A DNA stretch of 64,000 bases, from contig NZ_JAQZAM010000003.1 in assembly GCF_028737215.1 (NCBI RefSeq), forward strand, positions 186,001 to 250,000, given 5' to 3'. Of this stretch, positions 15,865 to 33,198 are shown one piece after another. The DNA comes from Actinomycetospora chibensis. Lineage in GTDB: Bacteria; Actinomycetota; Actinomycetes; Mycobacteriales; Pseudonocardiaceae. The notes beneath the pieces were generated by a model. It was not told the DNA's origin. It was given only the letters and a program-made list of their open reading frames with translations, and did not search any database. Position 1 is the first letter of the stretch; every line of letters starts with the position of its first letter. The translations under genes and the position numbers were made by a program.

Positions 15865-15942
15865 GGGGCAGTAGCTCAGCTGGTCAGAGCAGCGGACTCA
15901 TAATCCGTCAGGTCGTCGGTTCGAGCCCGACCTGCCCCACCA
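15865..15942 (+). tRNA. tRNA with anticodon CAU, probably elongator tRNA-Met
   Basis: A complete cloverleaf can be drawn. The acceptor GGGGCAG/CTGCCCC is followed by an encoded ACCA end. The D arm contains AGCTCAGCTGGTCAGAGC. The anticodon stem GCGGA/TCCGT carries the loop CTCATAA, and the T arm holds GGTTCGAGCC. The perfect first pair argues against initiator tRNA. Isoleucine tRNA with a modified C34 also has CAU and cannot be excluded by eye. Its 3' half is the attachment site of the element that follows. Confidence 0.92.
15905..15941. other. attL: 37-bp core in the 3' half of the tRNA gene
   Basis: Bases 15905-15941, from the anticodon stem to the CC of the CCA end, recur exactly at 31408-31444. 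Integration therefore leaves the tRNA gene intact at the left end, as usual for tyrosine integrases that target tRNA genes. The integrase gene begins (by its stop) 60 bases further in. Confidence 0.9.
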
Positions 15943-16001: not shown

Positions 16002-17168
16002 TCACTTTTCGTCGGCTTCCGCTGATCCCCAGGCGCTGTCGAGGGCGTCGGCGGCCTCGCGGCCGGCGGCTCGCTTGTCCATGTAGACGTCCTGCGTGAT
16101 CGAGGGCCGGGCGTGCCCGATGTGGCCGGCGATGGCCCGCGCCGAGAGGCCGTGCTGATCGAGCACCGTGGCCGCGGTCTTGCGGAAGACGTGGCTTGTG
16201 ACCCACTCGAAGCCGGCCAGGTCGAGCGTGGTCCGCAACCGGGCGCCGGTGTTGTGCGGATCGCGCCACGAGTCCCGCCCCAGACCGTGACCGCGGGAGT
16301 TCGGGAAGACCATCGAGTCCGGCAGCACGTCAGCCGGCCGCCGCTCGGTCAGCATCGCCATCGCGAACGCCGGGAGCGGCAGGACCCGTTGCGAGGCGAA
16401 CGTCTTCCCCTCGTGGCGGACCAGGCCGACGCGCTTGACCCGCACGATGTTCGCCACGATCGCCACCGTCTCGGCCTGCCAGTCGATCGCGTGGTCCTGC
16501 ACGGCCAGAACCTCACCGATGCGGCAACCCGTCGCGAGCATGAACCGCACGAGGTCGGGCAGGTCGAAGCGGAACGCATCCTCGTCGGCGTCGAGCTTGC
16601 CCAGCAGCTCCACCCGCTCCGACCGGGTCAGCGCCCGCACATCCTTCGGCGAGCCCTCGATGTGGCCGGCGTCCCGGACCGGGTTCGTCGAGATCGCGCC
16701 GAACCGTGCCGCCAGCGCCATCGCCCCGGAGATGACCGTCCGGACGCTGCGGGTGGTGTTCGCCGACAGCCGCGCCTCGCACGAGCGCAGGAACACGTCG
16801 ACTCGAGCCACCGTCACCTCACGAACCCGGAGCTGGCCCAGCGCCGGCACGACGTGGTTCCGAGCGTGCATCTCGTAGGTGTCGTACGTCGTGCCCTTGC
16901 GGCGGCGCTTCGTCTCGGCCAGGAACCGTTCGACCAGCTTCTCGACTCGGGTGTCCGCGGTGATCTCCCCGCCGGTCGGCGCCTGCCGAGTCCGCAGGTG
17001 GGACTTCAACGCCCGCTCCGCCGCCGCACGGGACTTGCCCGAGCGCTCGACGGGACGGGTGACGCCATCCGCATCCCGGACCTTCGTCATGGCTCGGACA
17101 CCACCGGAGGCCAGCTCGTAGAACCTGATCTTGCCGTGGGCTCCGACCGGCAGCGGTGGGCGGCCCAC
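16002..17168 (-). CDS. int: Tyrosine site-specific integrase
   Basis: The 388-residue recombinase integrates and, with excisionase, excises the element. It has an N-terminal arm-binding region, a SAM-like core-binding domain (about 75-160) and a catalytic domain. Catalytic residues are visible as Arg216 (ATGCRIGEV), His326 and Arg329 (SHVFRKTAA), His352 (GHIGHARP) and the nucleophile Tyr362 (DVYMDK). The gene ends 60 bases from the attL core and follows the excisionase gene by 3 bases, so both are expressed together. Confidence 0.95.
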   Translation of the reverse strand: MGRPPLPVGAHGKIRFYELASGGVRAMTKVRDADGVTRPVERSGKSRAAAERALKSHLRTRQAPTGGEITADTRVEKLVERFLAETKRRRKGTTYDTYEMHARNHVVPALGQLRVREVTVARVDVFLRSCEARLSANTTRSVRTVISGAMALAARFGAISTNPVRDAGHIEGSPKDVRALTRSERVELLGKLDADEDAFRFDLPDLVRFMLATGCRIGEVLAVQDHAIDWQAETVAIVANIVRVKRVGLVRHEGKTFASQRVLPLPAFAMAMLTERRPADVLPDSMVFPNSRGHGLGRDSWRDPHNTGARLRTTLDLAGFEWVTSHVFRKTAATVLDQHGLSARAIAGHIGHARPSITQDVYMDKRAAGREAADALDSAWGSAEADEK

Positions 17169-17171
17169 GGG

Positions 17172-17378
17172 TCAGGCCACCTCGTCGGTAAGGGCGTCGA
17201 ACCAGCGGCGCACCTCCTCCGGGTCGTACCGCAGGAAGCGGCCGACCTTGCGCGCACGAGGGCCGTAGCCCGTCGAACGCCACGAGTAGATCGTCTTCAC
17301 CGGGACGCCCAGGAACGTCGCCACGTCCTGCACCGTCCACAGCTTCGCGAGCCGCGGGTTCATCACTCCTGTTGCCAT
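17172..17378 (-). CDS. xis: Excisionase / MerR-like HTH DNA-binding protein
   Basis: The 68-residue protein carries a winged HTH of the HTH_17 (excisionase) class: LWTVQDVATFLGVPVKTIYSWR at residues 14-35, then YGPRARKVGRFLRYDPEEVRRWF. This is the standard form of AICE Xis proteins, which bind near att and direct excision. A strong GAGGAGGAG site lies 3-4 bases before the ATG at 17378. It sits between the replication gene and int, as in pSAM2. Confidence 0.88.
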   Translation of the reverse strand: MATGVMNPRLAKLWTVQDVATFLGVPVKTIYSWRSTGYGPRARKVGRFLRYDPEEVRRWFDALTDEVA

Positions 17379-17391
17379 CACTCCTCCTCGA

Positions 17392-18909
17392 TCATGCAGG
17401 CGTCGTGGTCTCCTCCTTCGCCGCACGCCGCCTTGCCCGCGCGTTGGCCGCCGACGTGTTCGCCAGCAGCGCGTCGGCGCTGGTGTGCCAGCCGATGCCG
17501 GCGAAGGCCAGGGAGTTGACGATGACCTCGGTGGTGTCCTCGTCGGCCAGTTCGTCGTCCTCGTCGGGATGTGGGGCGTGCTCACGGCGCCAGTCGCGGC
17601 GGGCCTGGCGCAAGGCAGCGAGGGTGGTGGAGTAGCGGCGGGACCGGGTGGAGAAGTGGCCGCCAAACCCGAGCATGTGCGCCCAGCGCCGGAGCCGGCC
17701 CCAGCCGGCGGCCCACTCCTCGGCGTCGACGGTCTCGGGACGGGTGCCGAGGTGCCAGCAGGCGTCGATCTGGCGGCCGGGGTGGGTGTCGAGGCGCGCG
17801 TAGTCCCGCACGGTGTCGGGACGCAGGCGCGTCGAGGCGTGGCCGGCCAGCTCGGTCGCCTTGGTGGCGTACTTCGCGAGGTAGCCGGCGACGGCGCCGG
17901 TGGTGATTTCGCCGGAGTCGTCGAGGTCGAGCCGGGAGAGCCGGACGGGGCGGGGGTCGACCTGTTCGCCCCACACGATAGGCCAGCCCAGCTCGCGGGC
18001 CGGATGCGGAGCGGTGACGAACCGAGTCTCTTCCACGGCGCGGCGGAGGACGGTGGCGAGGTGGTGGGCGCCGACGCGGGCGTCCGGGACCAGGACGGCG
18101 TCGGGGTCGGTGGGGTCGCGGCCGTCGAGGCGGACCAGGGCGTGCAGGTGCACCGCGCCGCGCGCCTGGAACTCGGCGACCTTGGTGTAGCTCAGTCGCA
18201 GCTTGATGTGGTGGCGCTTCTCCAGCGCTGTGATCCCGCGTCGGGCGGCGATCATCGTGCGGCGCCACAGCTCTCCGGCATGCAGGTTCCACACCGCCTG
18301 GGTGGGGTGGTCGTAGCAGTCCAGGCACAGCGGGCGACCCAGCTCCGGGGCGTCGTCGTCGTGGCGGTCGAAGCAGGCCAGCGGGGCGCCGTGCGGGCAG
18401 TGCTCGAGGTGGCGTCGCGGGCGGCAGGCGATGGTGCGCCCGGCGCGGTCGGTGCGGTGCGCGTGCACCGGGCCGAAGGAGGGGGCGGTGACGGTGAGGA
18501 ACACACACGGGTGCTCCGACACTGAGGCGGGGACGCCCTTGCCGCCGACGAGTCCGGCCGCGACGAGCTGGTAGGTGTCGGCGCGGTAGGTCTCTGCGCA
18601 GCCGGCGCACACCGAGGCTCGGCGGTTGCCGCACGGGGTGTAGAGCACCCCGTCGGGCATCTCGGTGGTGTGGACGTCGCGGGTGATGCGCCAGGTGGAG
18701 GCCTCGACGTGAGTCACGTTTCCGACCAGCCGGATGGGGTGCGAGCAGCCGGCGGCGCCGGCGATGTGGCTCATCCACCGGTCGTGGTCGTCGCGGACCG
18801 CAGCTGCGACCTCGGCGAGGGAGGCAGTGACGGCGTCGCGAGCTCGTCGACGAGCACCCAGCTCCTCGACCGTCTCCGACCGCGCCACGCGCGCCCTGGT
18901 GGTCGTCAT
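17392..18909 (-). CDS. RepSA-like replication initiator
   Basis: The 505-residue protein resembles the initiator of pSAM2-type elements, which nicks the double-strand origin for rolling-circle replication after excision. Cysteine pairs (CGNRRASVCAGC, HCPHG, CLDCYDH) suggest zinc binding in the N-terminal half. GAVHLHALVRLDG near residue 245 gives the His-x-His metal motif of HUH nucleases, and GYLAKYATKATE near residue 345 supplies candidate catalytic tyrosines. The C-terminus is acidic and then Ala/Arg rich. It overlaps the preceding small gene as ATGA. Confidence 0.88.
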   Translation of the reverse strand: MTTTRARVARSETVEELGARRRARDAVTASLAEVAAAVRDDHDRWMSHIAGAAGCSHPIRLVGNVTHVEASTWRITRDVHTTEMPDGVLYTPCGNRRASVCAGCAETYRADTYQLVAAGLVGGKGVPASVSEHPCVFLTVTAPSFGPVHAHRTDRAGRTIACRPRRHLEHCPHGAPLACFDRHDDDAPELGRPLCLDCYDHPTQAVWNLHAGELWRRTMIAARRGITALEKRHHIKLRLSYTKVAEFQARGAVHLHALVRLDGRDPTDPDAVLVPDARVGAHHLATVLRRAVEETRFVTAPHPARELGWPIVWGEQVDPRPVRLSRLDLDDSGEITTGAVAGYLAKYATKATELAGHASTRLRPDTVRDYARLDTHPGRQIDACWHLGTRPETVDAEEWAAGWGRLRRWAHMLGFGGHFSTRSRRYSTTLAALRQARRDWRREHAPHPDEDDELADEDTTEVIVNSLAFAGIGWHTSADALLANTSAANARARRRAAKEETTTPA

Positions 18910-19172
18910 CGCCGGTCCGAGATGCGGGTGTCGATGCTGGGGTCGCAGCTGGCGAGATAGCGGGCGTTGGCCCGCAGGTCGCGCCCGAGCAGGTCGGCCT
19001 CGTCGGGCGAGAGCAGGACCTCGATGGTGCGGTTCGGCCCGATCGTCAGGCGCACGACAAGCACGACCGCGGCGGCGTCCATCACCGGCGCGATGTTCGC
19101 CGCGCACAGCCGAGTGACCCGGTCCACCGGGATATCGCCGACCCCGACCTCACGGCGTGCCGGGGCGTTCAC
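18906..19172 (-). CDS. Small AICE-core protein, unknown function
   Basis: The 88-residue protein sits between the translocase and the initiator genes, overlapping both (GTGA at its start, ATGA at its stop), so its translation is tied to theirs. It is mostly alpha/beta, with a hydrophobic VMDAAAVVLVVRLTIG strand and VLLSPDEADLLGRDLR. Similar small proteins occur at this place in many AICEs and may be spread or regulatory proteins. No motif defines the role. Confidence 0.65.
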   Translation of the reverse strand: MNAPARREVGVGDIPVDRVTRLCAANIAPVMDAAAVVLVVRLTIGPNRTIEVLLSPDEADLLGRDLRANARYLASCDPSIDTRISDRR

Positions 19173-20062
19173 GCCGCGCTCCCGTGGCCGTGCCGCAGGG
19201 ACGCGGCGCGCTCGGCCAGGGCATAGACCTGCTCGTCGGACAGGTAGGCGGACTTGATGCGGCGCGGTTCGCCGCCCTCAGCGAGCAGCAGGCCGACGCC
19301 CTTGTCCTCCGGGGCGATGGCGACGGCGGTGTGGCCTCGGGTGGCCCAGCCGGCCCCGAGGACGATGTCCGAGCTGCTGTCGGTGGTGCAGCGGAACGCC
19401 CACCGGTAGCCGAACAGGTCCCGCAGGCTGGTCGGGATGATGTCCGACGACGGTCGTTGAGTGGCGGCCACGACGATGATCCCGGCGGCACGGCCCCGGG
19501 CTACCAGGTCGCGCACGGCCACGGAGAAGGCTTCCCGCTGCGCCTTGGCGCCCACGGTCGCCGAGTAGTAGGCGACCTCGTCGAACACGGCCACCACCGG
19601 TGAGATGCCGTGCGTGCTGGCGTCGTCGGGGGTGATCTTGCGACGACGCTGGGCGTCGAGCAGGTCGTAGCGACGATCCATCTCGGCCTGGAGGTCGCCC
19701 AGGGCGCTCAGGGCGTCGTCGAGGTTGGGGCCGACGAACCGCCGCGCGCACGAGCGCCAGAGGCCGAGTTCGACGAGCTTGCCGTCGAAGAGCCACAGGT
19801 CGCAGTCGGTGGACAGGGCGGCGTGGCCGACCGGGAGGTTCAGCCCGACCGACTTGCCCGCGCCGGGCTCCCCGGCCAGGAGCATGTTGCGGTAGGTCAA
19901 GATGACGCGGACCGGCTGTCCGTACTCGTCGACCCCGAGGTGGATTGGCTCCCAGATCGAGAGCGCCGAGGGCTCCGGGGCCTCGTCACACAGGCTGGCG
20001 GTGGTGGTGACGGCGGTGCGCCAGTCGCGCAGCAGGGCGCGCAAGCGGGTCGGCTCAGACAT
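19169..20062 (-). CDS. TraSA/FtsK-like DNA translocase
   Basis: The 297-residue ATPase is of the FtsK/SpoIIIE class and is probably the single protein that moves double-stranded element DNA between mycelial cells, as TraSA does for pSAM2, whose length is about the same. The Walker A GEPGAGKS lies near residues 62-69 and the Walker B VVAVFDEVAYY near 162-172. AATQRPSSDIIPTSLRDLF is the conserved segment that follows. No membrane segment is present; the upstream membrane protein may anchor it. The ATG at 20062 overlaps the upstream stop by 8 bases. Confidence 0.88.
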   Translation of the reverse strand: MSEPTRLRALLRDWRTAVTTTASLCDEAPEPSALSIWEPIHLGVDEYGQPVRVILTYRNMLLAGEPGAGKSVGLNLPVGHAALSTDCDLWLFDGKLVELGLWRSCARRFVGPNLDDALSALGDLQAEMDRRYDLLDAQRRRKITPDDASTHGISPVVAVFDEVAYYSATVGAKAQREAFSVAVRDLVARGRAAGIIVVAATQRPSSDIIPTSLRDLFGYRWAFRCTTDSSSDIVLGAGWATRGHTAVAIAPEDKGVGLLLAEGGEPRRIKSAYLSDEQVYALAERAASLRHGHGSAA

Positions 20063-20897
20063 AGTCCGACCAGTCCCCGCCACGGTCGTGCACGACCGCC
20101 CGGTCTTCCTTCGAGCGCTCCGGCTCGGCGTTCTCGGCCTGGTCGATGACAACCGGGACGTCGTCGCGCTCGTCGAGCGTGGGCCGCGGGACCGGCACGC
20201 CGTTCGTGGCAGCCGCCCGAGCGGTACCGGAGTGGTGCTGATTGGCCGGCGTCGGCGGGACGATCATGGCCCCGCGCGGGGGCGCCTGGCCGGTGGCGGC
20301 GGTCCAGTCGTCCAGCTCGGAGGCGATCAGCTCCTTGGCGAGCGGGTCGCGGCGGATGACCTCGACCTTCACCAGGGCGGTCATGCGCCTCGTCGGCGTG
20401 ACGCGGGCGTCGCGGGCGAAGCAGCCCGAGGCGATCCACTCGACCTCGTCCTCGACGTCGGAGGGGCTAATCCCGGCCCGGAGCAGCAGCCACACGGTGT
20501 CGCCGACCTTGTTCGGACGGGACCAGAGGAAGAGCGGGGCGTGGCGGGAGAAGTTCAGGCAGCGGCGCTCGACGAGGACCTGGCGGAGCCGGTGGCGGGT
20601 CATCACCGCAGAAGCCCGGCGCGAGACGAAGCGCCGGAACGCTGGCACCGCGAGAACAGCGGCCACCGTGATGGCGATGACCGCTGACGCGGCGGCGGGC
20701 GGGAGCCAGGAGTAGGCGACGGCGAGAAACGCGAACACCAGCGCCAGGGCGGTCAGCTCGGCGCGAAGCCGGATGGTGAGGCCGGCGAGCCTGGCGGAGG
20801 GGTGGGTGACGGGGTTGCTTATGACCTCGAACGAGTCGGTGCGGGCACGGCGCACGATCGGGCGGGTGGCGGGACGGCCGGCGGTGTTGCGAGCCAT
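20055..20897 (-). CDS. Membrane protein of the AICE transfer operon
   Basis: The 280-residue protein has two adjacent hydrophobic segments at about residues 48-65 and 68-86, with a basic N-terminus and a large cytoplasmic part that ends in a proline- and acid-rich tail. Its position directly before the translocase gene, with overlap, suggests that it works in transfer or spread. Resemblance to Spd proteins is positional only; I see no recognised domain. Confidence 0.7.
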   Translation of the reverse strand: MARNTAGRPATRPIVRRARTDSFEVISNPVTHPSARLAGLTIRLRAELTALALVFAFLAVAYSWLPPAAASAVIAITVAAVLAVPAFRRFVSRRASAVMTRHRLRQVLVERRCLNFSRHAPLFLWSRPNKVGDTVWLLLRAGISPSDVEDEVEWIASGCFARDARVTPTRRMTALVKVEVIRRDPLAKELIASELDDWTAATGQAPPRGAMIVPPTPANQHHSGTARAAATNGVPVPRPTLDERDDVPVVIDQAENAEPERSKEDRAVVHDRGGDWSDYV

Positions 20898-21270: not shown

Positions 21271-21605
21271 GAGCCGGCGCCCTTCGCGCTCGGGGTCTGG
21301 CCGGCCGGGATGGTCTCGATCGCGTCGGCCTTGAACGACACCCCCGAGCGGCCGTCCTGCTGCCAGGGAATCGCAATCAGGTTGCGCGGCCGGACCTCGT
21401 CGCCAACAGCTACGTCGGGCACGCCGGCGGTGGTGCAATTGAGAACCTCGGCACCCTCGGGGCCGATCTTGACCAGCTGTGTGACCGACAGTCCGATACC
21501 GCTGAGGCGGTCGGTGCGCTGGCGGCCCTGCATATCAGTCTTTGGCTTGGGCGCCGCACCGACGCTGTAGCGATCCTCCGAGATGTCCACCTTGATCGTT
21601 GCCAT
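21267..21605 (-). CDS. Conserved AICE protein, first gene of the core operon
   Basis: The 112-residue soluble protein has a beta-rich centre (VTQLVKIGPEGAEVLNCTTAG, then DEVRPRNLIAIPWQQDGRSGVSF). The ATG at 21605 has GGGAGGA 6 bases upstream. It heads the minus-strand operon that runs through the translocase, initiator, excisionase and integrase. A strong hairpin at 21622-21659 lies immediately upstream. The function is unknown; position and length resemble accessory genes in Streptomyces elements. Confidence 0.65.
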   Translation of the reverse strand: MATIKVDISEDRYSVGAAPKPKTDMQGRQRTDRLSGIGLSVTQLVKIGPEGAEVLNCTTAGVPDVAVGDEVRPRNLIAIPWQQDGRSGVSFKADAIETIPAGQTPSAKGAGS

Positions 21606-21621
21606 GTCGTCCTCCCAGGGA

Positions 21622-21659
21622 CTTCGAGGTGATGGCCCCGGCATCGGGGCACCTCGAAG
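21622..21659. promoter_or_regulatory. Two-part hairpin in the divergent control region
   Basis: CTTCGAGGT (21622-21630) pairs with ACCTCGAAG (21651-21659), and inside it GCCCCG pairs with CGGGGC around GCAT, leaving a 4-base bulge on one side. It lies between the core operon and the divergent regulator, 17 bases before the operon start codon. It could be an operator, a terminator shielding the two promoters, or a leader structure. Confidence 0.55.
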
Positions 21660-21707
21660 ACTCCGGGAATCAGAAGGACGACCACACCACATGGCTGGAC
21701 ATCTCCG

Positions 21708-21742
21708 GACGTCCTTGAGAGTCTCAGACGTCCAAGACGTCC
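21708..21742. promoter_or_regulatory. Three GACGTCC repeats before the HTH regulator
   Basis: GACGTCC occurs at 21708-21714, 21727-21733 and 21736-21742. The last copy ends 17 bases before the regulator ATG at 21760. Repeats in the shared control region of the element make a good candidate binding site for the regulator encoded next to it. Confidence 0.45.
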
Positions 21743-21759
21743 CCTGGAGGGTCCTGGTC

Positions 21760-22503
21760 ATGGCGAACGAGCGGCTACGCGACGCGCTACATCGAGGCGG
21801 GACCACCCTGGAGGACATCGCCCAGCGCACCGGCGTTGACCCAAAGACCGTCGAGCGCTGGATCACTCAGGACCGCGTGCCTTACCCGCGGCACCGTCGG
21901 ACTGTCGCGACCGTGCTGGCCGAAGCCGAGTCCTACCTCTGGCCTTCGGCGAACTCTGACCAGAAGATCGAAGAGGCGTCGAACTCCGAAGTCGTCAAGG
22001 TCTACCCGAGTCGCAACGCCGTCCCTCGCGAGCTGTGGGATCGCCTGCTCAGCGAAGCTGGCTCGCGAGTCGACATCCTCGTCTACGTCGGGATGTTCCT
22101 AACGGAGAACCCCGCGCTGCTTCCCGCGCTCCGTGAGAAGGGCTCAGCCGGCGGGCGCATAAGGCTGCTGTTCGGGGACCCGAACAGCCGCGAAGTGATG
22201 CGCCGCAGCACCGACGAAGGGATCGGACGCAACGCCATCTCTGCGAAGATTCGCAACGCGCTCGCGTTCTTCGGCCGGATCGCCGACGCTCCCGGCATCG
22301 AGATTCGCTGCCACAGCACAACGCTCTACAACTCCATCTACCGTTATGACGACGAGATGATCGTCAACCCACACGTCTACGGCGCCCCCGCACCGCATGC
22401 ACCCGCGATGCACCTGCGCCGGCTCTCGGCGGGCCTGATGTTCGAGACCTACGCGCAGAGCTTCGACACCGTGTGGGAGGCCGCCAAGCCTCCGAAGTGG
22501 TAG
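21760..22503 (+). CDS. XRE-type HTH regulator with a C-terminal effector-like domain
   Basis: The 247-residue protein opens with an HTH (TTLEDIAQRTGVDPKTVERW, residues 15-34). The C-terminal 170 residues form a separate alpha/beta domain with SRVDILVYVGMFL, RIRLLFGDPNSREV and HSTTLYNSIYRYDDEMIVNPHVYG, like the DUF5919-type domain attached to regulators of actinobacterial elements, which resembles phospholipase-D folds. It probably controls the divergent core operon, the role of KorSA or Pra in pSAM2. A GGAGGG site lies about 10 bases before the ATG. Confidence 0.8.
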   Translation: MANERLRDALHRGGTTLEDIAQRTGVDPKTVERWITQDRVPYPRHRRTVATVLAEAESYLWPSANSDQKIEEASNSEVVKVYPSRNAVPRELWDRLLSEAGSRVDILVYVGMFLTENPALLPALREKGSAGGRIRLLFGDPNSREVMRRSTDEGIGRNAISAKIRNALAFFGRIADAPGIEIRCHSTTLYNSIYRYDDEMIVNPHVYGAPAPHAPAMHLRRLSAGLMFETYAQSFDTVWEAAKPPKW

Positions 22504-22513: not shown

Positions 22514-22981
22514 GTGGGCAAGACCGACTACTACGACGATCCTGCGGCTCCCGCTGCCAACAGCCTCGTCGTGGCCGTGGCCGCGGTGGTCCTCGACGAC
22601 CATGGGCGGGTCCTGCTCATCCAGCGCACCGACAACGGTCTGTGGGCACTCCCAGGCGGTGCACAGGACCTCGGCGAGTCGGTGAGCCAGGCCGCGGTGC
22701 GCGAGACCCGAGAGGAGACCGGCCTCAAGGTCGAGGTGACCGGCATCGTCGGGGTCTACTCGGACCCGCGCCACGTCATCAGCTACGACGACGGCGAGGT
22801 GCGCCAGGAGTTCTCGGTCTGCCTCCGCGCCCGACCCTTAGCGGGTGACCTGGCGACCAGCACTGAGAGCCGCGTCGTACGGTGGGTCGATCCGAGCCAG
22901 CTCGACCAACTCGAGATGCACCCGACCATGCGTCTGCGCGTCGAGCACGGCCTCAACGCCGGGGCTCCTCACATCGACTGA
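22514..22981 (+). CDS. Nudix hydrolase, Pif-like
   Basis: The 155-residue protein carries the Nudix box GGAQDLGESVSQAAVRET followed by REETGL (residues about 53-77), which binds metal and hydrolyses nucleoside diphosphate-linked compounds. In pSAM2 the Nudix protein Pif blocks transfer into cells that already carry the element, and a Nudix gene beside the regulator is a hallmark of this class. It starts with GTG 10 bases after the regulator stop, so the two are cotranscribed. Its 3' end overlaps the convergent HD gene by 13 bases. Confidence 0.85.
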   Translation: MGKTDYYDDPAAPAANSLVVAVAAVVLDDHGRVLLIQRTDNGLWALPGGAQDLGESVSQAAVRETREETGLKVEVTGIVGVYSDPRHVISYDDGEVRQEFSVCLRARPLAGDLATSTESRVVRWVDPSQLDQLEMHPTMRLRVEHGLNAGAPHID

Positions 22982-24148: not shown

Positions 24149-24796
24149 CTAGCTATTGCGAATGTATGCAGGGGATTTCGCCGTCTTCATGAACTCGTGA
24201 GCTATCTGCCTTACAGAGGCCAAAGCGAAGTTGTTCTTCAGCTCCAGCTCGCGTCCGTGCTCGTCAAAGAAGGCCATGCCAAGGCCATTCTCCTCTGCAA
24301 GTTTGTGGTAGGGGGCGTAGACGTTCCGGTGAACGTGGGCACCACCTTCCTTGTTTGCGAGGGTAAGCACGAAGTTTTCGCGGCTCCACTCCGTGCCATC
24401 CTGCTCTTTCGCGACCGAACGCGTCCACCAGTGGTCGAAATTGCTTCGCCTGCTCAGGAAGGGCGGTGGCAATTCGTCGAGTCCGGCGAAGTAGGGACCT
24501 GGAGACTTGGGGAGCGTCCTGTACGTCTGGGCGAGCCCGAGCGTCGCAAGTATGTTCTGGGGGTTGATGTCCGGGGCCGTATCGAAATATGCCAACCGCT
24601 CTTTGAGGCCTAGCTGTCTTAATAGAGAGTGAGAAGTTCCCTTATCGAAGAACAGTACGCGCAACGTGACTGCGAGACGCTTGGCTTCTGCCTCGTGGCC
24701 CTCGTCGTAGGCGTCCGCGGACACTCGAAGGAATTCAAGGCTCTCGAACAACATTTCTGTGAGCTGCTTGCGAGTCCGACGGATAGGATCGCTCAA
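24149..24796 (-). CDS. Unknown cargo protein, 215 aa
   Basis: The start is TTG with GGAGG 6 bases upstream. The N-terminal third is helical (QLTEMLFESLEFLRVSADAYDEG, EAKRLAVTLRVLFF, SHSLLRQLG), and the remainder contains conserved-looking aromatic and charged patches (RSNFDHWWTRSV, HVHRNVYAPYHKLAEENGLG). I believe similar proteins of unknown function occur widely in accessory regions, but I cannot name a family. A small overlapping frame on the same strand (24735-24860, GTG start, 41 residues) precedes it. It is probably transcribed together with the membrane-anchored gene downstream. Confidence 0.6.
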   Translation of the reverse strand: MSDPIRRTRKQLTEMLFESLEFLRVSADAYDEGHEAEAKRLAVTLRVLFFDKGTSHSLLRQLGLKERLAYFDTAPDINPQNILATLGLAQTYRTLPKSPGPYFAGLDELPPPFLSRRSNFDHWWTRSVAKEQDGTEWSRENFVLTLANKEGGAHVHRNVYAPYHKLAEENGLGMAFFDEHGRELELKNNFALASVRQIAHEFMKTAKSPAYIRNS

Positions 24797-25278
24797 TCAA
24801 AGCCTCCATCTGTCTGGCGACCTCGTCGCGCAACCGTCTCCTAGCTTGCAATGCCTCCACGTGAGTATAGGGCAGCGCAGAAGAGGCCCAACTGGCGCCC
24901 TCGCCCCCTTCGACCTGTTCCCTCCACGATGACTAAGTTCGGCGATCTTGCCGGACTCGCCGCCCAGCTAAGCGGTGAGAACTTTCTTTACGTCTTCAAG
25001 CCGGCCCTCACGGGCCGGACCGGGCGGCTCCGCTGCCAGCCCGCCTCCTGCCTTCGGCCCGGCGGCTGGCGCGGGCACGCCCGGCCAACCGCAGGTCGGC
25101 ACAGGCCACTAGACGCCGCACACACAAATGGTTGGGACGCGCCTGAAGTTCCCAGTGGCACGTGGGGGCGTGGTCCAACTGTAACGGGGCGAGCAGCTGA
25201 CACGATAAGGACGCATCTACAGTTGAGATTAACAGGATGGCATGGTCTGTGTGCGCCGGATGGGGGGAGAACCTACCT
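24797..25278. other. Divergent intergenic region with promoter-like elements and a hairpin
   Basis: No full gene is seen. On the minus strand a TATACT box (24863-24868) lies just before the GTG of the 41-residue frame at 24735-24860, which could be a leader peptide or part of the next gene. CCGGCCC (25001-25007) and GGGCCGG (25012-25018) form a stem inside a short GC-rich block that stands out from the AT-richer surroundings. The divergent genes on both sides probably use promoters in this region. Confidence 0.4.
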
Positions 25279-26400
25279 ATGACAGTAGTCGCACGGTTTG
25301 GGGCGGGGTGCTTCTACTTCGTGCCGCTGGGGATTGCGCGCGACGCTCAGTCGTGGGAGAGGTTCGTAAAGGCAGAATTGGAGAAGATTCCCTCCGTTTC
25401 AGAGATCGAGTTCGCCCTAGACGGTGGCTGGGTCGGCGCTGATGAAGTTAAGGTACTTGAGGGCGATTTACCTGACGATCTTCAAGTGATTCAGCCTGGA
25501 GGTGGAACGCTCACCTTCGAGGTAACGATTCCTTTGCGGGTTCAGGAGGGCCTGTTCGGCGCGGTCGCTCCCATTCTCGACTGCACCCAATTCAGGCTGA
25601 TCACCTACTACGAGTTTGAAGGGCCGGCCACCATTGTTCGTTGTTTAGAGGGTGACTTGGCCGAGAACGATCCTAGCGACGCCGTCTTTCTGGTTCGTGA
25701 GTTCCTGGAGAACGAGCTGCGGACCCGTCGCGAGTCGCGTCTAAAACTGGTCACTGTCGGCCCCAGTCCCTTTCACGCGAACTTCTCTGTTGTTGATGAT
25801 GCCGCAGACCTCAACGAAGGCAAGGCGTCTCCTCTCGGCAACATGCTATTCGAGCGCCGCGGGCAGCTTGGGTACGCCGAGTACCTCTTCCATAAGGAGC
25901 GCAGTGCTGAATCTGTGGCAGAATTTGCAAGAAGTGTACCGCCGATTTTGGCTCGCCAGTTGGCCTTCTTCTACTCTCTAAGTGTCGCGCGGGCCATCAG
26001 AATCAAGAACGCTGACGTTGCCGAGAGAGCGCGAGAGGAACTCGTCAAACGGTATCGAGCGCACGGTCTTGGGGCCCTCTTATACCGACTCTTTCGCTCC
26101 GGGAGGGCGGCTCGCAATACTCTAATCTTGGTAATCGAACTTGAGAATACCGAGTCGCGTCATAAGCGGCAGTACGAAAACGGGTTGCGTGAGTTCGAGA
26201 GCCAGGGGGAGGAGGTGGCAATTCTAGGCGAGATGAAGGAGGCTGCAGAATTTTCGCAGCTCGATGATCTGAAGTCAGCTCGCGAGACGGTCGTGGCACT
26301 AGATGAGGTGCGTAAGAAGGAGTTCGAGGTGGCTGTTGTCTCACTCTCAACGCTTCTTGGTGCGGCCGCAGGCGCCGTAGCGTCATTGCTGTCCGGCTGA
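25279..26400 (+). CDS. Unknown cargo protein with C-terminal membrane segment
   Basis: The 373-residue product begins MTVVARFGAGCFYFVPLG and has a beta-rich N-terminal half, a central helical region (about 190-270) and a charged coiled stretch (about 285-345). It ends in one hydrophobic segment, VVSLSTLLGAAAGAVASLLSG, that could span the membrane or insert as a short hairpin. Tail-anchored proteins of this type are common as effectors in abortive-infection systems, but that is only analogy. GGGGGGAGA lies about 10 bases before the chosen ATG; an ATG at 25237 would add 14 residues. It is divergent from the two minus-strand cargo genes. Confidence 0.6.
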   Translation: MTVVARFGAGCFYFVPLGIARDAQSWERFVKAELEKIPSVSEIEFALDGGWVGADEVKVLEGDLPDDLQVIQPGGGTLTFEVTIPLRVQEGLFGAVAPILDCTQFRLITYYEFEGPATIVRCLEGDLAENDPSDAVFLVREFLENELRTRRESRLKLVTVGPSPFHANFSVVDDAADLNEGKASPLGNMLFERRGQLGYAEYLFHKERSAESVAEFARSVPPILARQLAFFYSLSVARAIRIKNADVAERAREELVKRYRAHGLGALLYRLFRSGRAARNTLILVIELENTESRHKRQYENGLREFESQGEEVAILGEMKEAAEFSQLDDLKSARETVVALDEVRKKEFEVAVVSLSTLLGAAAGAVASLLSG

Positions 26401-26499
26401 AGTCGTCTTCGCATCTGAGGGCCCGGTCGGACCGTGTCTGATATCCCGGCGGGGCGCTCGCCGCCCCCGCACCCCAGGCGACCTCCGGGGAGGGGGCAA

Positions 26500-26624
26500 G
26501 TCTCCCCGTCGGCCACCGGAGGCGTAGCACCCCAGGGGCAGGGGGCCAGGTCGTTCAGCCGCCGGGTGCTCCACCTGGCCCCCTGCCCCTGGCGCGCTTC
26601 GGGAGGACCTGGCCGACGGGGAGA
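26500..26624. repeat. Nested long inverted repeat (15-bp outer, 20-bp inner arms)
   Basis: The outer arms 26500-26514 and 26610-26624 are exact complements. The inner arms 26532-26551 and 26573-26592 are also exact, around a 21-base loop. The whole 125 bp can fold into one long hairpin or cruciform. It lies between converging genes (stops at 26400 and 27122) and may terminate both, but it is much larger than needed for that. A diverged copy of its right half occurs at 30926-30991. Confidence 0.7.
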
Positions 26625-27121
26625 GCAGGGACCCAGCGTTGGGGCAACGGGACCAAGATCAAGGGCGGTGCCCTCGGTGCTCAAGCCTCTATCGCTGTGA
26701 AGCTTCTCCGGACGTCGCTTGCCCTCCGTCGCGACGGTCGCCGACTCAGCCTCTGGGCGGTTGCTCGCGGTTGGTCCTGAGATCGACTGTCGGGTCACGC
26801 TTGGGGCACGGGAGCCCTCGACGAGCCCGGAGACGACCGGAACCACCAGAAGGTCAACAGCCAGGTCAGGGCTGGTATAGCCGGCGGTGGTCCTGGTCGC
26901 CCTGACTCGTGAAAACGCTCCGGCTTAAAGGCTGCTAGCCGGGGCTATCGGCCCGCTGTTCGCCCCTCGTCAACGAGGTATTTGGACCCCGCTTCTCCAG
27001 CGGAGGAGCACTAGGTTGCGAGCACAACCTGCCCGTCAGGGGTGCGTCCTAGACGGAGCGTTATGCCGAATCCACATATCTGCGATGCTACGGTAGACGA
27101 GACGTCGATCTGCCGGGTGGT
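26625..27121. other. Non-coding stretch between cargo genes
   Basis: I see no supported gene in these 500 bases. Frames on both strands are short or have unnatural composition. The base composition is mixed, which suggests decayed sequence. Confidence 0.4.
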
Positions 27122-30004
27122 TCATATTTTCCGCGAGGTAGTGGTCGTCACACCCAAGACGGAGATGGTGCTATCCGACCACATGTCGAACATATCTTCA
27201 CCTCTCCGAGACGCTCCACTCCGTGCGCACAGTTCGGAGAGGCATTCCCCTAGGCCCCCGATAGAGCTTAGATCGCATGTGCGCGGGAGGCCTGCGACTT
27301 GCCACATCTCGCGGACAAGTCTTTCGGCCTCGAAGGACGAGCCGAGCTCCCAAAGGGCGGCAGCAGCGATACAACCCAGCGAGTAGAACGCAGAGACCTC
27401 GTATTGCAGCTCCCAATGATGGAGCCTCAATCTCCAGGCGGACTTCTCGCTGCTCAGGGCTTTCTCTAACCCATCCTTCAGGCGCTGAGCTACCACCTTA
27501 TTAGGAATCCTGATGCGCCACATGTCCGAACCAACAGTGCCCGCGAATTCACTGAAGCTCGCTGGGAACAGCCCAGTCGTGGATAACTCATCGAGCGAGT
27601 CGACCAAAGCTCCAACCGTGTAGGTAGGAGACCTCTCCTGCTTGGAGCTAGGCCGGTAGACTGGCACGGCAACGAAGACACCGGGCCCGTGATCCGAGAT
27701 GACGGACGATATCGTTGTCAGACCTAATCTTAGATTGTGCAGTACAAATTCTGGGTGAGTCTCGTGAATTCGGAGTACGTAAGCCGCACCGTATCGCATT
27801 GCTGAGTAGTGATGGCCATCCGCGTCGAACTCCGCAAGTACCCTTTCTGCTTCTCCGCGGGTTCGATTCGAGAACTGCCTGCTGTACGCGAGGACCTCTT
27901 GCCGCAAAGTGTAGTCCGGTGAAGATGCAACAACAGCCAAAGAGCCTAAGAAAACCAGCTTTACGACGTCCCACGCCAAGTCTTCGCGAGCGACAAATCG
28001 AAGAAGAAAGAGGGCAAGGGACGTACTAGCGGCGACTTCCGTTGTTGAGTTTGCTACCAGCCTCACGCATCTTTCAAGATCTCCGGTCGCATCGTACGCC
28101 CGCAATGCGACGTCGGGCGCGACTAGGCTCCTTCCCGATACAATCATCTCTCGCAAATCATCGGCAAGGTCCTTCGTCGATCTCGCATTGCGTGCTAAGT
28201 AGCGTCCTGCATAGTACTCCATCAACGTGCGATGCGCGAAACCGTATACCCGGTCACCTCTCTCATCCCGATCAAACTGAGTCAAAACCCAGCCGCGGCC
28301 CGAGCAATGCTCGAAGAATCGTTCCTCTAGTTCATGGTTCGACTCCTCGTCTGCGACCACGATACGTGATATCGCAGCTTGAACTACTCTTCGTAGTAGG
28401 CGCTCGCTCGCGCGATCACGGGGATGTTCACTCAGGAAGAAGAAGCTGGCTAGCTCTTCCACCAAGCGTCGGAGTCTGTTCTCAGCGGGGACGGTGAGTT
28501 GCACACCGCGGAGTCGGTCCCATCGAATAAGAAGCAGTTCAGCGCACGCAGCATAAGCAGCCGAAGGAGAGTCTGGTATTGCCCCGTCGTAACGTTGCAG
28601 CAAACACAAGAGTGAAAGCAACAGCGGGTTGCTTCTGATATCCCTAAGGTGATCTGTCTGATTTAAGAATCGCGTCGAGACTGCGTATCCGCGATTACCT
28701 GAGCCCTCAACGATTGTGAACCAGCGCCGCGAGTATTCGGCCACCTGGGCTCGATCAAATTCATTCAGCTCATAGACGGGAAACTCTTTCCTCTCGAGCG
28801 GAGCGCTGGAGTACGTTTCGATGCGACAGGTAACTAGTATATTGGCCAATGGGTAGTTGAACGCAAAGGCTTGAATTGCCTTTGCTGTGCGACGTCGACC
28901 TTCTAGGTTTGCCACTTCATCGAGGGCATCGAATACGACGTTCATTAGCCCGCTTCTTAACAGGCTGACTACTTCATCCTTGGTAACGTCCTCTTGTAGA
29001 AGCCTTGCTATTTCTCTTGCTAGAGCACCTGTAATCGTCTCTGAGTTGTCTTGGTAGTTCTTGAGCTCGATCATGATCGAGCAGGGCCCTTCATCATCCC
29101 ATGCCGACGCGACAGATGAGTCGTAGAGACTCTTTCGGACGAATGTGCTCTTACCTGCTCCTGGATTTCCAACGACCACACAAGATGTATCGGCGATATC
29201 GGGTTCAGTGATGTTTCTTAGGCCCGATACTCCCCCTCCAGCTCTGACGGCGCTCGCGGATTCAGGTAGCATGGTTAGAGTTCGCCGGACATATACTGAA
29301 TCGACCGAGCTGAAGTGCTCTGTGGTAGAGTGAGGCATCTCGACAATCTTGTATTGCCGGCGAGTCTGCTCGCGAATCCTTGAATGCAAAACATCAACTC
29401 GATCAGCCATCAACTCGCTGAGCGGAATTTCGGCTCGCAGTGTGGCGGCCGATGTCTTCGTCGTGCTCCCGGGAGCCCCTACAGGACGCATGACACGGAC
29501 CATATGCATAGCGCGCTGATTCGTGCCTTCACCTTTCGCCAGTCCTGCCTTTGTGCGGGCAGCTATGTCCCCGCAGAGTGTCTGCCAAAGAGGCGCGGCG
29601 ATGGGGTCGACTTCCTTGATCGTCATGCGTAACTTGCGCGCGAGCTCCGTAATAAACGCGAATTCGAGTTGATCTCGCTCTGCCTGTCGCCTGATTCTTT
29701 TCTCTTCGCCGTCTTTCCGCAGCTCGACCTCCTGGTACTGCGCGTGATCTGCGACTTCGAGGTAGGCCATCATCTGCAACAGGCTTGCGCATTTTCGGCT
29801 TCTTAGGTAGGAAGCAATCTTGTCTTGATGGTGCCTCGCCGCTTTCGTCTCGCTCCACGTCTCGAACTTCCGGATCGCTTTCGGATCGCGAACTATTGTT
29901 TCGTAGATCCACCGCCATGATGGGATTGCCGACTTGAAAAGCCCCGCGCCGAGGGCCTTCGCTGCTGCGGTTGCGGCTGCGGTGGCGAGAGACCCTGGGT
30001 CCAA
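27122..30004 (-). CDS. NACHT-domain STAND NTPase, candidate anti-phage NLR-like protein
   Basis: This is a 960-residue signal-transduction NTPase. Residues 1-155 form an Ala-rich then charged helical N-terminal region of unknown type, where an effector or adaptor would sit. The NACHT core has Walker A GNPGAGKST (about 278-286), Walker B VVFDALDEV (about 354-362) with the extended acidic residues typical of NACHT, and the sensor segment ILVTCRIETYSSAPL. FAHRTLMEYYAGRYLAR near residue 625 is the end of the winged-helix part. A long helical C-terminus (650-960) probably senses a ligand. The start is TTG with AAAGGA about 9 bases upstream. Bacterial NACHT proteins are known phage-defence factors. 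GC is low for the window. Confidence 0.9.
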   Translation of the reverse strand: MDPGSLATAAATAAAKALGAGLFKSAIPSWRWIYETIVRDPKAIRKFETWSETKAARHHQDKIASYLRSRKCASLLQMMAYLEVADHAQYQEVELRKDGEEKRIRRQAERDQLEFAFITELARKLRMTIKEVDPIAAPLWQTLCGDIAARTKAGLAKGEGTNQRAMHMVRVMRPVGAPGSTTKTSAATLRAEIPLSELMADRVDVLHSRIREQTRRQYKIVEMPHSTTEHFSSVDSVYVRRTLTMLPESASAVRAGGGVSGLRNITEPDIADTSCVVVGNPGAGKSTFVRKSLYDSSVASAWDDEGPCSIMIELKNYQDNSETITGALAREIARLLQEDVTKDEVVSLLRSGLMNVVFDALDEVANLEGRRRTAKAIQAFAFNYPLANILVTCRIETYSSAPLERKEFPVYELNEFDRAQVAEYSRRWFTIVEGSGNRGYAVSTRFLNQTDHLRDIRSNPLLLSLLCLLQRYDGAIPDSPSAAYAACAELLLIRWDRLRGVQLTVPAENRLRRLVEELASFFFLSEHPRDRASERLLRRVVQAAISRIVVADEESNHELEERFFEHCSGRGWVLTQFDRDERGDRVYGFAHRTLMEYYAGRYLARNARSTKDLADDLREMIVSGRSLVAPDVALRAYDATGDLERCVRLVANSTTEVAASTSLALFLLRFVAREDLAWDVVKLVFLGSLAVVASSPDYTLRQEVLAYSRQFSNRTRGEAERVLAEFDADGHHYSAMRYGAAYVLRIHETHPEFVLHNLRLGLTTISSVISDHGPGVFVAVPVYRPSSKQERSPTYTVGALVDSLDELSTTGLFPASFSEFAGTVGSDMWRIRIPNKVVAQRLKDGLEKALSSEKSAWRLRLHHWELQYEVSAFYSLGCIAAAALWELGSSFEAERLVREMWQVAGLPRTCDLSSIGGLGECLSELCARSGASRRGEDMFDMWSDSTISVLGVTTTTSRKI

Positions 30005-30621
30005 TGCTAAAATCCTTTGATCCTACTTGCCTGGCGAATCTTTGCGGAGGTCGATTGAGTGGGTTGCCGGGGGCCGAGTCTACTCGAGTTGACCGTAGAA
30101 AGCACTTGGACTTGCGGCGTTGGAAGTATGGCCTCGTGCCGACCGAGATGAGCGATCACCGGTCCCCGTCCGGCACCCCGTTGTCCGGCGTGATGCGCCG
30201 CGGTGGACCTAGGCAGCCAGGTCTCCCCGCCCGTCAGGTCTTCCAAGGCGCGGCAAGGCAGGAACCTAAGCGAGCACCCGAAGCGAAAGACGAGCTGGAC
30301 CTCTGCCCGGCGAGCGCTGTGCCCCTGATGTGATCGGCGGCAGCAAGCTGGAGGACCGTCACACCGAAGCGCTCAACTCCTTGGCCCTAGCCGGCCCACA
30401 GTAAGCATGTACTTGTCAAAGATCAAGGACTGCTCTGGGGACCATCTGAGGACCGCGGGCCGCTCACTTTGCCCGCGTGCCCGCACCTCGGGCACGGCCG
30501 CGTCGGGCAAATGAAGATGGGCTGACGTGCCGCTCCTCGCCCCCGCCGTCCTGGGTCAAAGTTGGGCTGAGAGCCCGTCTATCCCGGCGCGCCAGGTCTT
30601 CGCGCTGCTACTTAGGAGCGG
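30005..30621. other. Intergenic region upstream of the NACHT gene, no gene seen
   Basis: The region should hold the promoter of the NACHT gene. Short frames on both strands show no family features. A 10-base match to the start of the att core (CCGTCAGGTC) occurs near 30227 and is probably chance. Confidence 0.4.
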
Positions 30622-30715
30622 TTGAGCACCATCGACGGCAAGTTCGACGCCGAACGGCGTCGTACTCGGCGATGGCAGCGTTGACGGAGGCGGCGGTGAT
30701 GTCCTGGAGTGCCAC
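30622..30715 (-). pseudogene. Remnant of a ScoMcrA-like N-terminal domain
   Basis: From a GTG at 30715 the frame reads VALQDITAASVNAAIAEYDAV, the opening of the N-terminal domain of ScoMcrA-type HNH restriction proteins as I know it. It then loses the pattern. A second frame (30622-30656) continues with FGVELAVDGAQ, similar to the expected next segment. The piece is therefore frameshifted and truncated, a trace of a former type IV restriction gene. Identification rests on about 30 residues. Confidence 0.4.
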
Positions 30716-30925
30716 GGGATGAGATTACCGTGGCAGCATCAAGAGGGTTGCTGCTCCCTTCTCGCCACGGACCGACGTCGGACACCCAGGTCGCTGATGG
30801 AGTTGTCAAGGATCGAGGTTTGCCGGAGAGCAAATGCGAACGTCACCTTCGGGCGCGGGCCGGGGCAGGGAAGAGCTCTTGTTGCCGGCCACCCGGAGGG
30901 CCCAGCGCCCGCCAATGGGCGGGTT

Positions 30926-30991
30926 GTTCAGTGCGTCGGTGCTCCACTGAGCCGTTGAAAGTGGACCTATCGGTAGGACCTGGCCGACGGG
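30926..30991. repeat. Diverged copy of part of the 26.5-kb inverted-repeat region
   Basis: GTTCAG, then a CGG-rich step, TGCTCCAC and, about 50 bases on, AGGACCTGGCCGACGGG occur in this order here and at 26553-26620. The last 17 bases are identical (30975-30991 and 26604-26620). The two copies bracket the NACHT gene. The flanks 30716-30925 and 30992-31052 show no other feature I can support. Confidence 0.5.
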
Positions 30992-31052
30992 TCGACCGCG
31001 CGCCAGCCGTCACGTCTGGACGACCTCGAGCAGCTCGGGCACCGTGCCGGAC

Positions 31053-31253
31053 ATGCCCGAGGAAGAACTGGCTCAGGCCCAGGGCGAGCAGGACGCCGCG
31101 ATGGCGCTCGCCGAGGAGGACCACTGGCAGATCGTCGGCGGCGGCATGCTCACCGTGCACCCATTCGGGGAATGGGTCCCGCGAGCGCACCGACGCGCCT
31201 ACCTCGCCGGCGCCGCCTCCGTTCTCGGATACCGCCCGCTGATCATGGCCTGA
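31053..31253 (+). CDS. Small protein, 66 aa, paralogue of a chromosomal gene
   Basis: The product is 66 residues, with an acidic Gln/Ala-rich start (EEELAQAQGEQDAAMALAEE), then GGGMLTVHPFGEWVPRAH and SVLGYRPL. The gene at 32968 encodes a near-identical protein outside the element, and the DNA similarity reaches upstream over the shared sequence GCTCGGGCACCGTGCCGGAC. The function is unknown. This copy lies 155 bases inside the right end of the element, where the GC returns to chromosomal level. Confidence 0.6.
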   Translation: MPEEELAQAQGEQDAAMALAEEDHWQIVGGGMLTVHPFGEWVPRAHRRAYLAGAASVLGYRPLIMA

Positions 31254-31407
31254 CGGGGCAAGATCGTTCCCACACTTTTCCCCCACGGAATGATGGGGGA
31301 GAGGGTGCCCGAGCCCGTCACGCTCGGAATGGCGCCACCGGCGTCCGACCAGCTCAGAGGCCGGGTTTGCCACTGCCCGCAGCCGGCCAGAACGGGTCAA
31401 CCAGAAC

Positions 31408-31444
31408 CCGTCAGGTCGTCGGTTCGAGCCCGACCTGCCCCACC
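31408..31444. other. attR: second copy of the 37-bp att core
   Basis: The 37 bases equal 15905-15941 of the tRNA gene and end one base before the final A of the tRNA would be. Just before it ACGGGT and ACCCGT form a 6-bp inverted repeat, a possible integrase or excisionase contact site. The 300-base gap 31254-31554 holds this site and no gene. Confidence 0.9.
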
Positions 31445-31554
31445 GAGACGCCGGGTCGGCGCACGATCGAGGCCGCCCTCGGCCGAATCCCTCGACGGTG
31501 GTCATCGACGCCTGCCACCTGGTCAACGCCGGAGGCGGCGGCCACGCTGGAGGC

Positions 31555-32917: not shown

Positions 32918-32967
32918 GAGGTCGGCCGCGCTGGACGCCGTCGGCGAGCTCGGGCACCGTGCCGGAC

Positions 32968-33168
32968 ATGACCGAGCGGGAGCAGGCCCAGGCCCAGGGC
33001 GAGCAGGACGCCGCGATCGCGCTGGCCGAGGAGGATCACCGGCGCATCGCCGGCGGGGGCATGCTCACCGTCCACCCCGTCGAGGAGTGGGTCCCGCGGG
33101 CCCACCGCCGGACCTACCTCGACGGCGCCGCGTCCGTCCTCGGCTACCGGCCGCTGATCAGGGCCTGA
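32968..33168 (+). CDS. Small protein, 66 aa, chromosomal paralogue
   Basis: The 66-residue product matches the element-borne protein at 31053 over nearly its whole length (QAQGEQDAA-ALAEEDH, GGGMLTVHP-EWVPRAHRR, GAASVLGYRPLI). It is acidic at the start and has no Cys or membrane segment. It follows the peptidase by 50 bases. Two copies with kept reading frames argue that both are real genes. The function is unknown. Confidence 0.6.
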   Translation: MTEREQAQAQGEQDAAIALAEEDHRRIAGGGMLTVHPVEEWVPRAHRRTYLDGAASVLGYRPLIRA

Positions 33169-33198
33169 CGGCGGTGGATCGCGATCCCGGGCGGGAGA

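What the first reader, a model, noticed from the sequence alone, without database searches (positions are those of the whole stretch)
27122..30004. NACHT NTPase carried as cargo on a conjugative element
A 960-residue STAND NTPase with clear Walker A (GNPGAGKST), extended Walker B (VVFDALDEV) and winged-helix features sits in the low-GC cargo half of an AICE. Bacterial NACHT proteins are proven phage-defence factors. Its N-terminal 155 residues and its long C-terminus match no effector or sensor domain I recognise, so the killing mechanism may be new.
Basis: partly seen in the sequence, partly recalled or inferred. Interest (0 to 1): 0.8.

Follow-up and report, generated by a model that had tools for sequence, protein, structure and literature searches.

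The report
NACHT immune-type switch on mobile element
A bacterium carries, on a mobile piece of DNA parked in a tRNA gene, a large ATP-driven switch protein of the kind bacteria use to sense phages; its relatives show a conserved front part and a fast-changing rear part, as expected of an immune sensor, but no one has tested it.

Summary
The 960-aa ORF at 27122-30004(-) is a NACHT protein (31.1 bits, cut-off 26.7). Its element is a pSAM2-type AICE: 37-bp att copies, one at the end of tRNA-Met, with integrase, RepSA, FtsK-type and Nudix genes; a same-genus genome has the empty site.

The ends are not orphan sequence. An 11-member subfamily shares the whole architecture, and N- and C-domains match those of a wider family (profile P 1e-7 and 6e-18; reversed controls 0.29, 0.083). 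No Pfam, NCBIfam, PADLOC or PDB entry matches the N-domain significantly.

Some copies are resident at near-native GC, between recO and uppS or beside a LigD polymerase gene; others lie on tRNA-bounded elements. In orthologue pairs the C-domain diverges fast (dN/dS 0.57-0.60 in 5 of 6) while NACHT is constrained (0.13-0.30 in those five). This fits an immune sensor better than a housekeeping regulator.

Defence is inferred, not shown. I see no conserved catalytic set in the N-domain; a membrane-acting helix is possible but unproven.

The parts
27122..30004 (-). NACHT STAND NTPase gene, 960 aa, TTG start
   Evidence: homologues
29381..30004 (-). N-terminal domain (residues 1-208), conserved in the family, no Pfam match; Ala/Gly-rich, nearly uncharged first helix at about residues 5-22 (helix inferred)
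29195..29380 (-). linker with subfamily signature MPHS...YVxR (residues 209-270)
   Evidence: invariant columns M223 P224 H225 S226 Y238 V239 R241
28715..29182 (-). NACHT NTPase core (residues 275-430), Walker A and B
   Evidence: Pfam PF05729
28169..28714 (-). helical / winged-helix part of the NACHT module, with FAHRTLMEYYA at its end (residues 431-612)
   Evidence: conservation; weak collinear alignment to NLRP3; winged-helix assignment is from recall, not from a model
27125..28168 (-). C-terminal domain (residues 613-960), inferred sensor, fast evolving in orthologue pairs of relatives
15865..15942 (+). tRNA-Met(CAT), integration site
15905..15941 (+). att core, left copy, 37 bp, identical to the right copy
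31408..31444 (+). att core, right copy, 37 bp
16002..17168 (-). tyrosine integrase
   Evidence: PF00589 E 2.3e-14
17172..17378 (-). probable excisionase (68 aa from an internal ATG of the listed ORF)
   Evidence: read by eye; xis assignment from recall
17392..19107 (-). RepSA replication initiator, pSAM2 type
   Evidence: PF20199 504.6 bits
19169..20152 (-). FtsK/SpoIIIE-type transfer protein (Tra)
   Evidence: PF01580 E 1.4e-12
20055..20897 (-). element gene of unknown function, 77.5% identical to one on an AICE in G004
21583..22503 (+). HTH regulator with DUF5919
   Evidence: DUF5919 over its cut-off; HTH hits under theirs
22514..22981 (+). NUDIX hydrolase, likely counterpart of pSAM2 Pif
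   Evidence: PF00293; Pif comparison from passages of PMC3218068
24149..24796 (-). cargo gene, matches phrog_7805 of unknown function
25237..26400 (+). cargo gene, 387 aa, no family match; one 37% relative among the 17 other same-genus genomes searched

Best explanation
It is a single-gene bacterial NLR-like (bNACHT-type) immune switch carried as cargo by a pSAM2-type AICE. Inferred working: the C-terminal domain senses an invader or a disturbance caused by one; the ATP-dependent NACHT/winged-helix module then oligomerises; the clustered, conserved N-domain stops phage growth or kills the cell. The N-domain is probably a non-enzymatic helical effector, perhaps membrane-acting through its Ala/Gly-rich first helix. 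Shown here: the NACHT module, a shared N-NACHT-C architecture, conservation of the N-domain, fast divergence of the C-domain in orthologue pairs of relatives, and carriage on an integrative element. Inferred: the ligand, oligomerisation, effector mode and phage defence itself.
For: NACHT match and intact Walker motifs. Family-wide N-domain and C-domain homology. C-domain dN/dS 0.57-0.60 against 0.13-0.30 in NACHT+WH for 5 of 6 pairs; neighbouring genes of three of those pairs gave 0.08-0.22 in 9 of 9 comparisons. AICE anatomy and empty site. Two other members lie between tRNA-Val repeats with an integrase gene: G004 and Mesorhizobium. Three further members lie on plasmids. A CHAT-domain gene is cargo of the AICE in tandem with the G004 element. 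Phage defence by bNACHT proteins and the sensor-switch-effector layout are taken from passages of PMC12169576.
Against: No PADLOC hit beyond the P-loop at E 0.046. The only NCBIfam antiphage hit, EruA, scores 22.3 bits against a cut-off of 1000. Seven subfamily copies are resident and share neighbours, which a housekeeping role would also give. The plasmid pair shows no C-domain acceleration (0.11 against 0.11 in N and 0.07 in NACHT). The rate test could not be done on the window protein, which has no close orthologue here. Relaxed constraint could also raise C-domain dN/dS. A wider test of an uncharged N-terminal helix was not convincing: the longest uncharged run lay in the first 60 residues in 5 of 32 proteins, 2.0 expected; in the subfamily only 5 of 11 first helices stay under 0.05 once the best of nine windows is allowed for.
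Confidence: 0.65

Rival explanations
1. A housekeeping or developmental STAND regulator of Pseudonocardiaceae-type actinomycetes that an AICE captured.
For: Three loci place a member between recO and uppS and four beside a LigD polymerase gene, with shared neighbours and near-native GC (Pfam was run on L046, L142 and L147, the other loci are assigned by similarity to these).
Against: In the resident pairs tested the C-domain diverges at dN/dS 0.58-0.60 where neighbouring genes show 0.08-0.22. Presence is patchy: 11 of 249 same-family genomes, the own one included, match the N-domain profile. Pfam finds no DNA-binding or transcription-activator domain in the window protein.
Confidence: 0.15
2. 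A weapon of the element itself: it acts against competing plasmids or AICEs, or stabilises its carrier, rather than against phages in general.
For: It lies on an AICE that also has a Nudix gene like the Pif conjugal-immunity gene (PMC3218068 passages). Relatives lie on plasmids.
Against: Resident chromosomal copies exist with no integrase or tRNA repeat noticed around them. No partner gene is conserved: of ten element genes only weak FtsK (L043) and Nudix (L082) hits were found near relatives.
Confidence: 0.15
3. An inert or decaying cargo gene.
For: AICE cargo is often pseudogenised (PMC9513070 passages). The protein has a long branch, 1.85, and no sigma-70-like promoter was found in 26300-31450.
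Against: The 960-codon frame is intact and keeps the residues invariant in its relatives, including Walker A, HRT..EY and MPHS..YV. An SD-like AAAGGA lies before the start. The promoter scan covers one promoter type only.
Confidence: 0.05

Closest known systems
Bacterial NACHT (bNACHT) antiphage proteins, e.g. clades 14 and 6 as described in PMC12169576
   Same: Central NACHT module in a single protein with N- and C-terminal domains; clade 14 also lacks a readily discernible effector domain (passages).
   Different: No PD-(D/E)XK nuclease or other known effector found; clade membership could not be tested because the clade paper (Kibby et al. 2023) is not held.
NACHT antiphage protein EruA (NCBIfam NF058535)
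   Same: Weak match over residues 356-610; all 11 subfamily members match weakly, best E 4.6e-10.
   Different: 22.3 bits against a cut-off of 1000 for the window protein; its match covers profile positions 72-310 of 1318.
pSAM2-type AICEs
   Same: int, xis-like, RepSA, FtsK-type Tra, Nudix, tRNA att site.
   Different: Cargo differs. A NACHT gene on AICEs or related elements of Frankia is named in a figure legend of PMC3218068; whether it is of this family was not tested.
HeLo / MLKL / RPW8 / bacterial Bell pore-forming N-domains of NLRs
   Same: An N-domain in front of the NTPase with a hydrophobic first segment (PMC9815663 passages).
   Different: No Pfam match to any of these; the four-helix fold is untested.

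Membership tests
NACHT-family STAND NTPases | NACHT domain over Pfam gathering score with Walker A and B | tested here: met
   31.1 bits against 26.7; motifs
bNACHT antiphage proteins | protection against phage | not testable with these tools
   needs expression and phage challenge
bNACHT antiphage proteins | recognisable N-terminal effector domain (not all clades have one) | tested here: not met
bNACHT antiphage proteins | variable C-terminal sensor domain behind a conserved NACHT module | tested here: met
   variability met in relatives: 5 of 6 pairs; sensing itself untested
EruA (NF058535) | score over the equivalog cut-off of 1000 bits | tested here: not met
   22.3 bits
PADLOC defence systems (version of 2023) | significant match to a system gene | tested here: not met
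   best mad8 E 0.046 over residues 272-297 only
HeLo / Bell / MLKL pore-forming domains | Pfam profile match in the N-domain | tested here: not met
   E up to 10 (HMMER filters drop most weak matches)
HeLo / Bell / MLKL pore-forming domains | four-helix bundle with an extrudable hydrophobic first helix | tested here: inconclusive
   hydrophobic first segment in 10 of 11 subfamily members, not convincing in 32 wider members; no structure available
AICE (FtsK/SpoIIIE-type ICE) | integrase, Rep of RepSA type and FtsK/SpoIIIE Tra between att repeats at a tRNA | tested here: met
AICE (FtsK/SpoIIIE-type ICE) | empty site in a close relative | tested here: met
   G017: flanks 90-96% identical, one att core inside an intact tRNA-Met
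AICE (FtsK/SpoIIIE-type ICE) | excision and conjugal transfer | not testable with these tools
   needs PCR across attB/attP and mating

The most novel reading that the evidence does not exclude
The N-domain is an undescribed, non-enzymatic effector domain of a NACHT family with members in Actinomycetota, Planctomycetota and Pseudomonadota. It would act by inserting its Ala/Gly-rich first helix into the membrane, a bacterial counterpart of the helical executioners of plant and fungal NLRs. The family would live both as resident genes fixed beside recO-uppS and as mobile AICE cargo.
Probability: 0.25. Interest if true: 0.65.

Novelty: new variant of a known kind. Interest (0 to 1): 0.42.

Why it matters
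Bacterial NACHT proteins with unrecognised ends are easily taken for orphans. Here both ends are conserved family domains, and the C-domain diverges fast in orthologues that share their neighbours. That makes the sensor half identifiable and directly testable by exchanging C-domains between resident orthologues in a laboratory actinomycete. If the N-domain proves to be a membrane executioner, it would tie bacterial NACHT proteins to the helical executioners of plant and fungal NLRs. The pairing of resident copies with AT-rich element-borne copies also gives a natural case for how immune genes move between chromosome and element.

Tried and rejected
Orphan ends: rejected. A single-sequence search with residues 1-251 found 5 of 397 genomes of the order sample: the own genome and four weak hits. 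I translated two of these four; by eye L044 is an oxidoreductase-like protein and L045 an implausible frame. The other two were frames of 211 and 163 codons with stops inside. The pair profile A3 then found 11 of 249 same-family genomes, the own one included, but only the own genome among 394 of the class sample.

Membrane helix: the longest uncharged run lay in the first 60 residues in 5 of 32 proteins, 2.0 expected. In the subfamily, 10 of 11 first segments are among the 4.3% most hydrophobic windows of their protein, L148 is not; allowing for the best of nine windows, 5 of 11 stay under 0.05; the hydrophobic moment is ordinary. Start codons there were partly my choice. Kept as a possibility only.

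Enzymatic effector: I see no catalytic constellation among the N-domain columns at 90% or more: M1, A14, A17, Y66, L67, C72, L75, L76, L82, E83, L113, F117, E120, L139, W140, R190, R202.

Conserved partner gene: tblastn of ten element genes against the loci then held (L001-L125, flanks 1.5 to 10 kb) gave only weak FtsK (L043) and Nudix (L082) hits besides the own locus.

General link of this family with RepSA AICEs: not found. RepSA occurs in 17 of 30 genomes or records of members (L046 was not held, so not searched), but none lay within the flanks held. The G004 copy lies on another element, where I scanned five genes with Pfam and found no RepSA, next to a RepSA AICE.

tRNA-repeat test: 11 of 90 loci hold a tRNA and 1 of 90 has a repeat pair around the NACHT gene; flanks are 10 kb at most, so misses say little. 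Low GC alone does not prove an element: L053 (-0.19), L068 (-0.16) and others are low in GC without an element noticed in the held flanks.

Single-protein scans of genome contigs and viral contigs: no relative. Phage records: no match at E 1e-3.

Slips: one search translated eight loci on the wrong strand (L005, L009, L014, L015, L020, L021, L023, L025); those translations were not used. In the tree two rows did not begin at a start codon (L127 about seven codons late, L054 about twelve early). Domain cuts rest on motif searches; seven rows lacked the C-cut motif and were left out of the C tests, and the N-cut of L069 is short (109 aa). One search was an incomplete submission on my side.

Full report
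Observation. The ORF at 27122-30004(-) codes for 960 aa from a TTG at 30004, with AAAGGA ending eight bases before it. Pfam NACHT covers residues 275-430 at 31.1 bits, cut-off 26.7. Walker A, the Walker B region and the F-x-H-R-T-x-x-E-Y motif are kept. PADLOC gave only a P-loop hit at E 0.046, NCBIfam only EruA at 22.3 bits against 1000, and the single-sequence PDB search nothing up to E 1. The 9-sequence profile A1 aligns weakly and collinearly to NLRP3 (E 0.0018 for the chain, no stretch significant alone). Against PHROGs the NACHT part matches phrog_18297, unknown function, E 4.7e-19 over residues 275-486.

The element. Between 15905 and 31444 lies a 15.5-kb AICE. The two 37-bp att cores are identical; the left one is in the 3' end of tRNA-Met. 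It carries a tyrosine integrase (PF00589), RepSA (PF20199, 504.6 bits), an FtsK/SpoIIIE protein (PF01580) and a Nudix protein, with a probable excisionase read by eye. In the same-genus genome G017 the flanks align at 90-96% and a single att core sits in an intact tRNA-Met, so the site is empty there. The right half, 23-31 kb, has GC 0.535-0.645 against about 0.67-0.75 around it. The abstract of PMC9513070 names phage resistance among AICE cargo (passage), and a figure legend of PMC3218068, in its section on AICEs and related elements of Frankia, lists a Nacht-domain NTPase (passage). NACHT on an AICE is thus not new in print.

The family. Searching 100 related genomes with the whole protein gave 19 with a match, the own one included; the other matches lie within residues 185-672. 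The best, from Solihabitans fulvus, is 30% identical over residues 18-946. A two-row profile of the N-domain then found 11 of 249 same-family genomes, the own one included. Nine of the ten other proteins (the broken L146 was dropped), with the window and Solihabitans proteins, align end to end, at 28-31% identity to the window protein. With that 11-row profile the N-domain aligns to the N-domains of 30 wider family members over 155 columns (probability 94.3, P 1e-7; reversed control P 0.29). The C-domain, 11 rows against 23, gives P 6e-18 (reversed control 0.083). With only the window and Solihabitans as profile the N-domain gave P 4e-4 and probability 34, and with the window alone P 0.07, no better than the reversed control. 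So the two unmatched ends are conserved family domains. I found no public model for the N-domain: hits up to E 10 in ten N-domains scanned were noise, best E 0.066.

Resident and mobile copies. In L046, L141 and L142 the gene lies between recO and uppS; in L147-L150 it lies beside a LigD primase-polymerase gene with shared neighbours (Pfam on L046, L142 and L147). These seven copies have the GC of their surroundings to within 0.04. The window copy is 0.14 below its flank, the G004 copy 0.17 and the Mesorhizobium copy 0.11; other copies are also low in GC with no element noticed (for example L053, -0.19). In G004, 44-bp copies of a tRNA-Val end start at 74518, 87431 and 100200 of its contig. 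The first pair encloses an integrase gene, an FtsK-like gene (23.5 bits, just under the cut-off of 24) and the NACHT relative; the second pair encloses an AICE with RepSA 78% and FtsK 88% identical to the window's and a CHAT-domain gene. In Mesorhizobium (L069) 71-bp copies of a tRNA-Val end enclose an integrase, the NACHT gene and a resolvase. Only 1 of 90 loci showed such a pair, with flanks of 10 kb at most. In a tree of 40 proteins the window row falls in a supported clade with L147-L150 (100/98) inside the 11-row subfamily (100/99), on a branch of 1.85 that the tool flags as long, so its exact place is unsure. The host's family, Pseudonocardiaceae, is my inference from named relatives.

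Evolutionary rates. In six orthologue pairs (L141/L142, L147/L150, L147/L149, L036/L038, L047/L048, L143/L144) dN/dS was: N-domain 0.41, 0.27, 0.28, 0.11, 0.17, 0.25; NACHT plus winged-helix part 0.30, 0.20, 0.17, 0.07, 0.13, 0.19; C-domain 0.58, 0.60, 0.58, 0.11, 0.58, 0.57. Two pairs share L147, and the plasmid pair L036/L038 is the exception. Nine comparisons of neighbouring genes, from three of these pairs, gave 0.08-0.22 (halves 0.04-0.28, neither half consistently higher). A fast C-domain behind a constrained switch and a more constrained N-domain is what a sensor-switch-effector protein in an arms race would show. Relaxed constraint is an alternative, and the window protein itself could not be tested.

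Mechanism. For the class (passages of PMC12169576): C-terminal sensing, NACHT oligomerisation, N-terminal effector. For this protein the effector step is open. I see no catalytic set among the conserved N-domain columns, which speaks against a nuclease, NADase or protease. The first segment is hydrophobic, with at most three charged residues in 18, in 10 of 11 subfamily members, but tests of its excess were weak. PMC9815663 (passages) describes fungal HeLo, plant RPW8, human MLKL and bacterial Bell domains as four-helix bundles that expel an N-terminal helix; no profile link to these was found.

Verdict. An intact NACHT protein on an AICE, a member of a NACHT family that I could not name, with its own N- and C-domains. 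Phage defence is the best explanation, not a result. Paper searches made; papers were seen as listings and passages only. The clade paper of Kibby et al. 2023 was not held, so this family may be one of its clades.

Noticed in passing
31016-31266 and 32931-33181: A 251-nt direct repeat, 84% identical: one copy inside the AICE near attR, one outside, past the M28 peptidase gene. It may mark an older insertion or host DNA picked up by the element.
   Followed up: no
24149-24796(-): Cargo protein of 215 aa matching phrog_7805, a phage protein family of unknown function, over residues 6-208 (E 2.4e-43).
   Followed up: no
L128 (G004 C3:85001-104000), 11223-13433(-): On an AICE in tandem with the NACHT-bearing element: a CHAT-domain gene (PF12770) and a 386-aa neighbour without a Pfam match, both with low third-position GC. 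A possible second defence cargo.
   Followed up: partly
G000 C21, C33, C52: The genome holds three RepSA genes, so probably three AICEs.
   Followed up: no
L047 from 9542 and 12143; L052 from 2303 and 6329: Two NACHT-family frames close together on one strand, in Lentzea nigeriaca and in a Nocardiopsaceae MAG.
   Followed up: no
L146 (G818 C24), 2426-2924: A broken subfamily copy: the N-domain matches in two separate short open frames.
   Followed up: no
30010-31000: About 1 kb between the NACHT start and the attR side without a convincing gene; no sigma-70-like promoter found in 26300-31450.
   Followed up: partly
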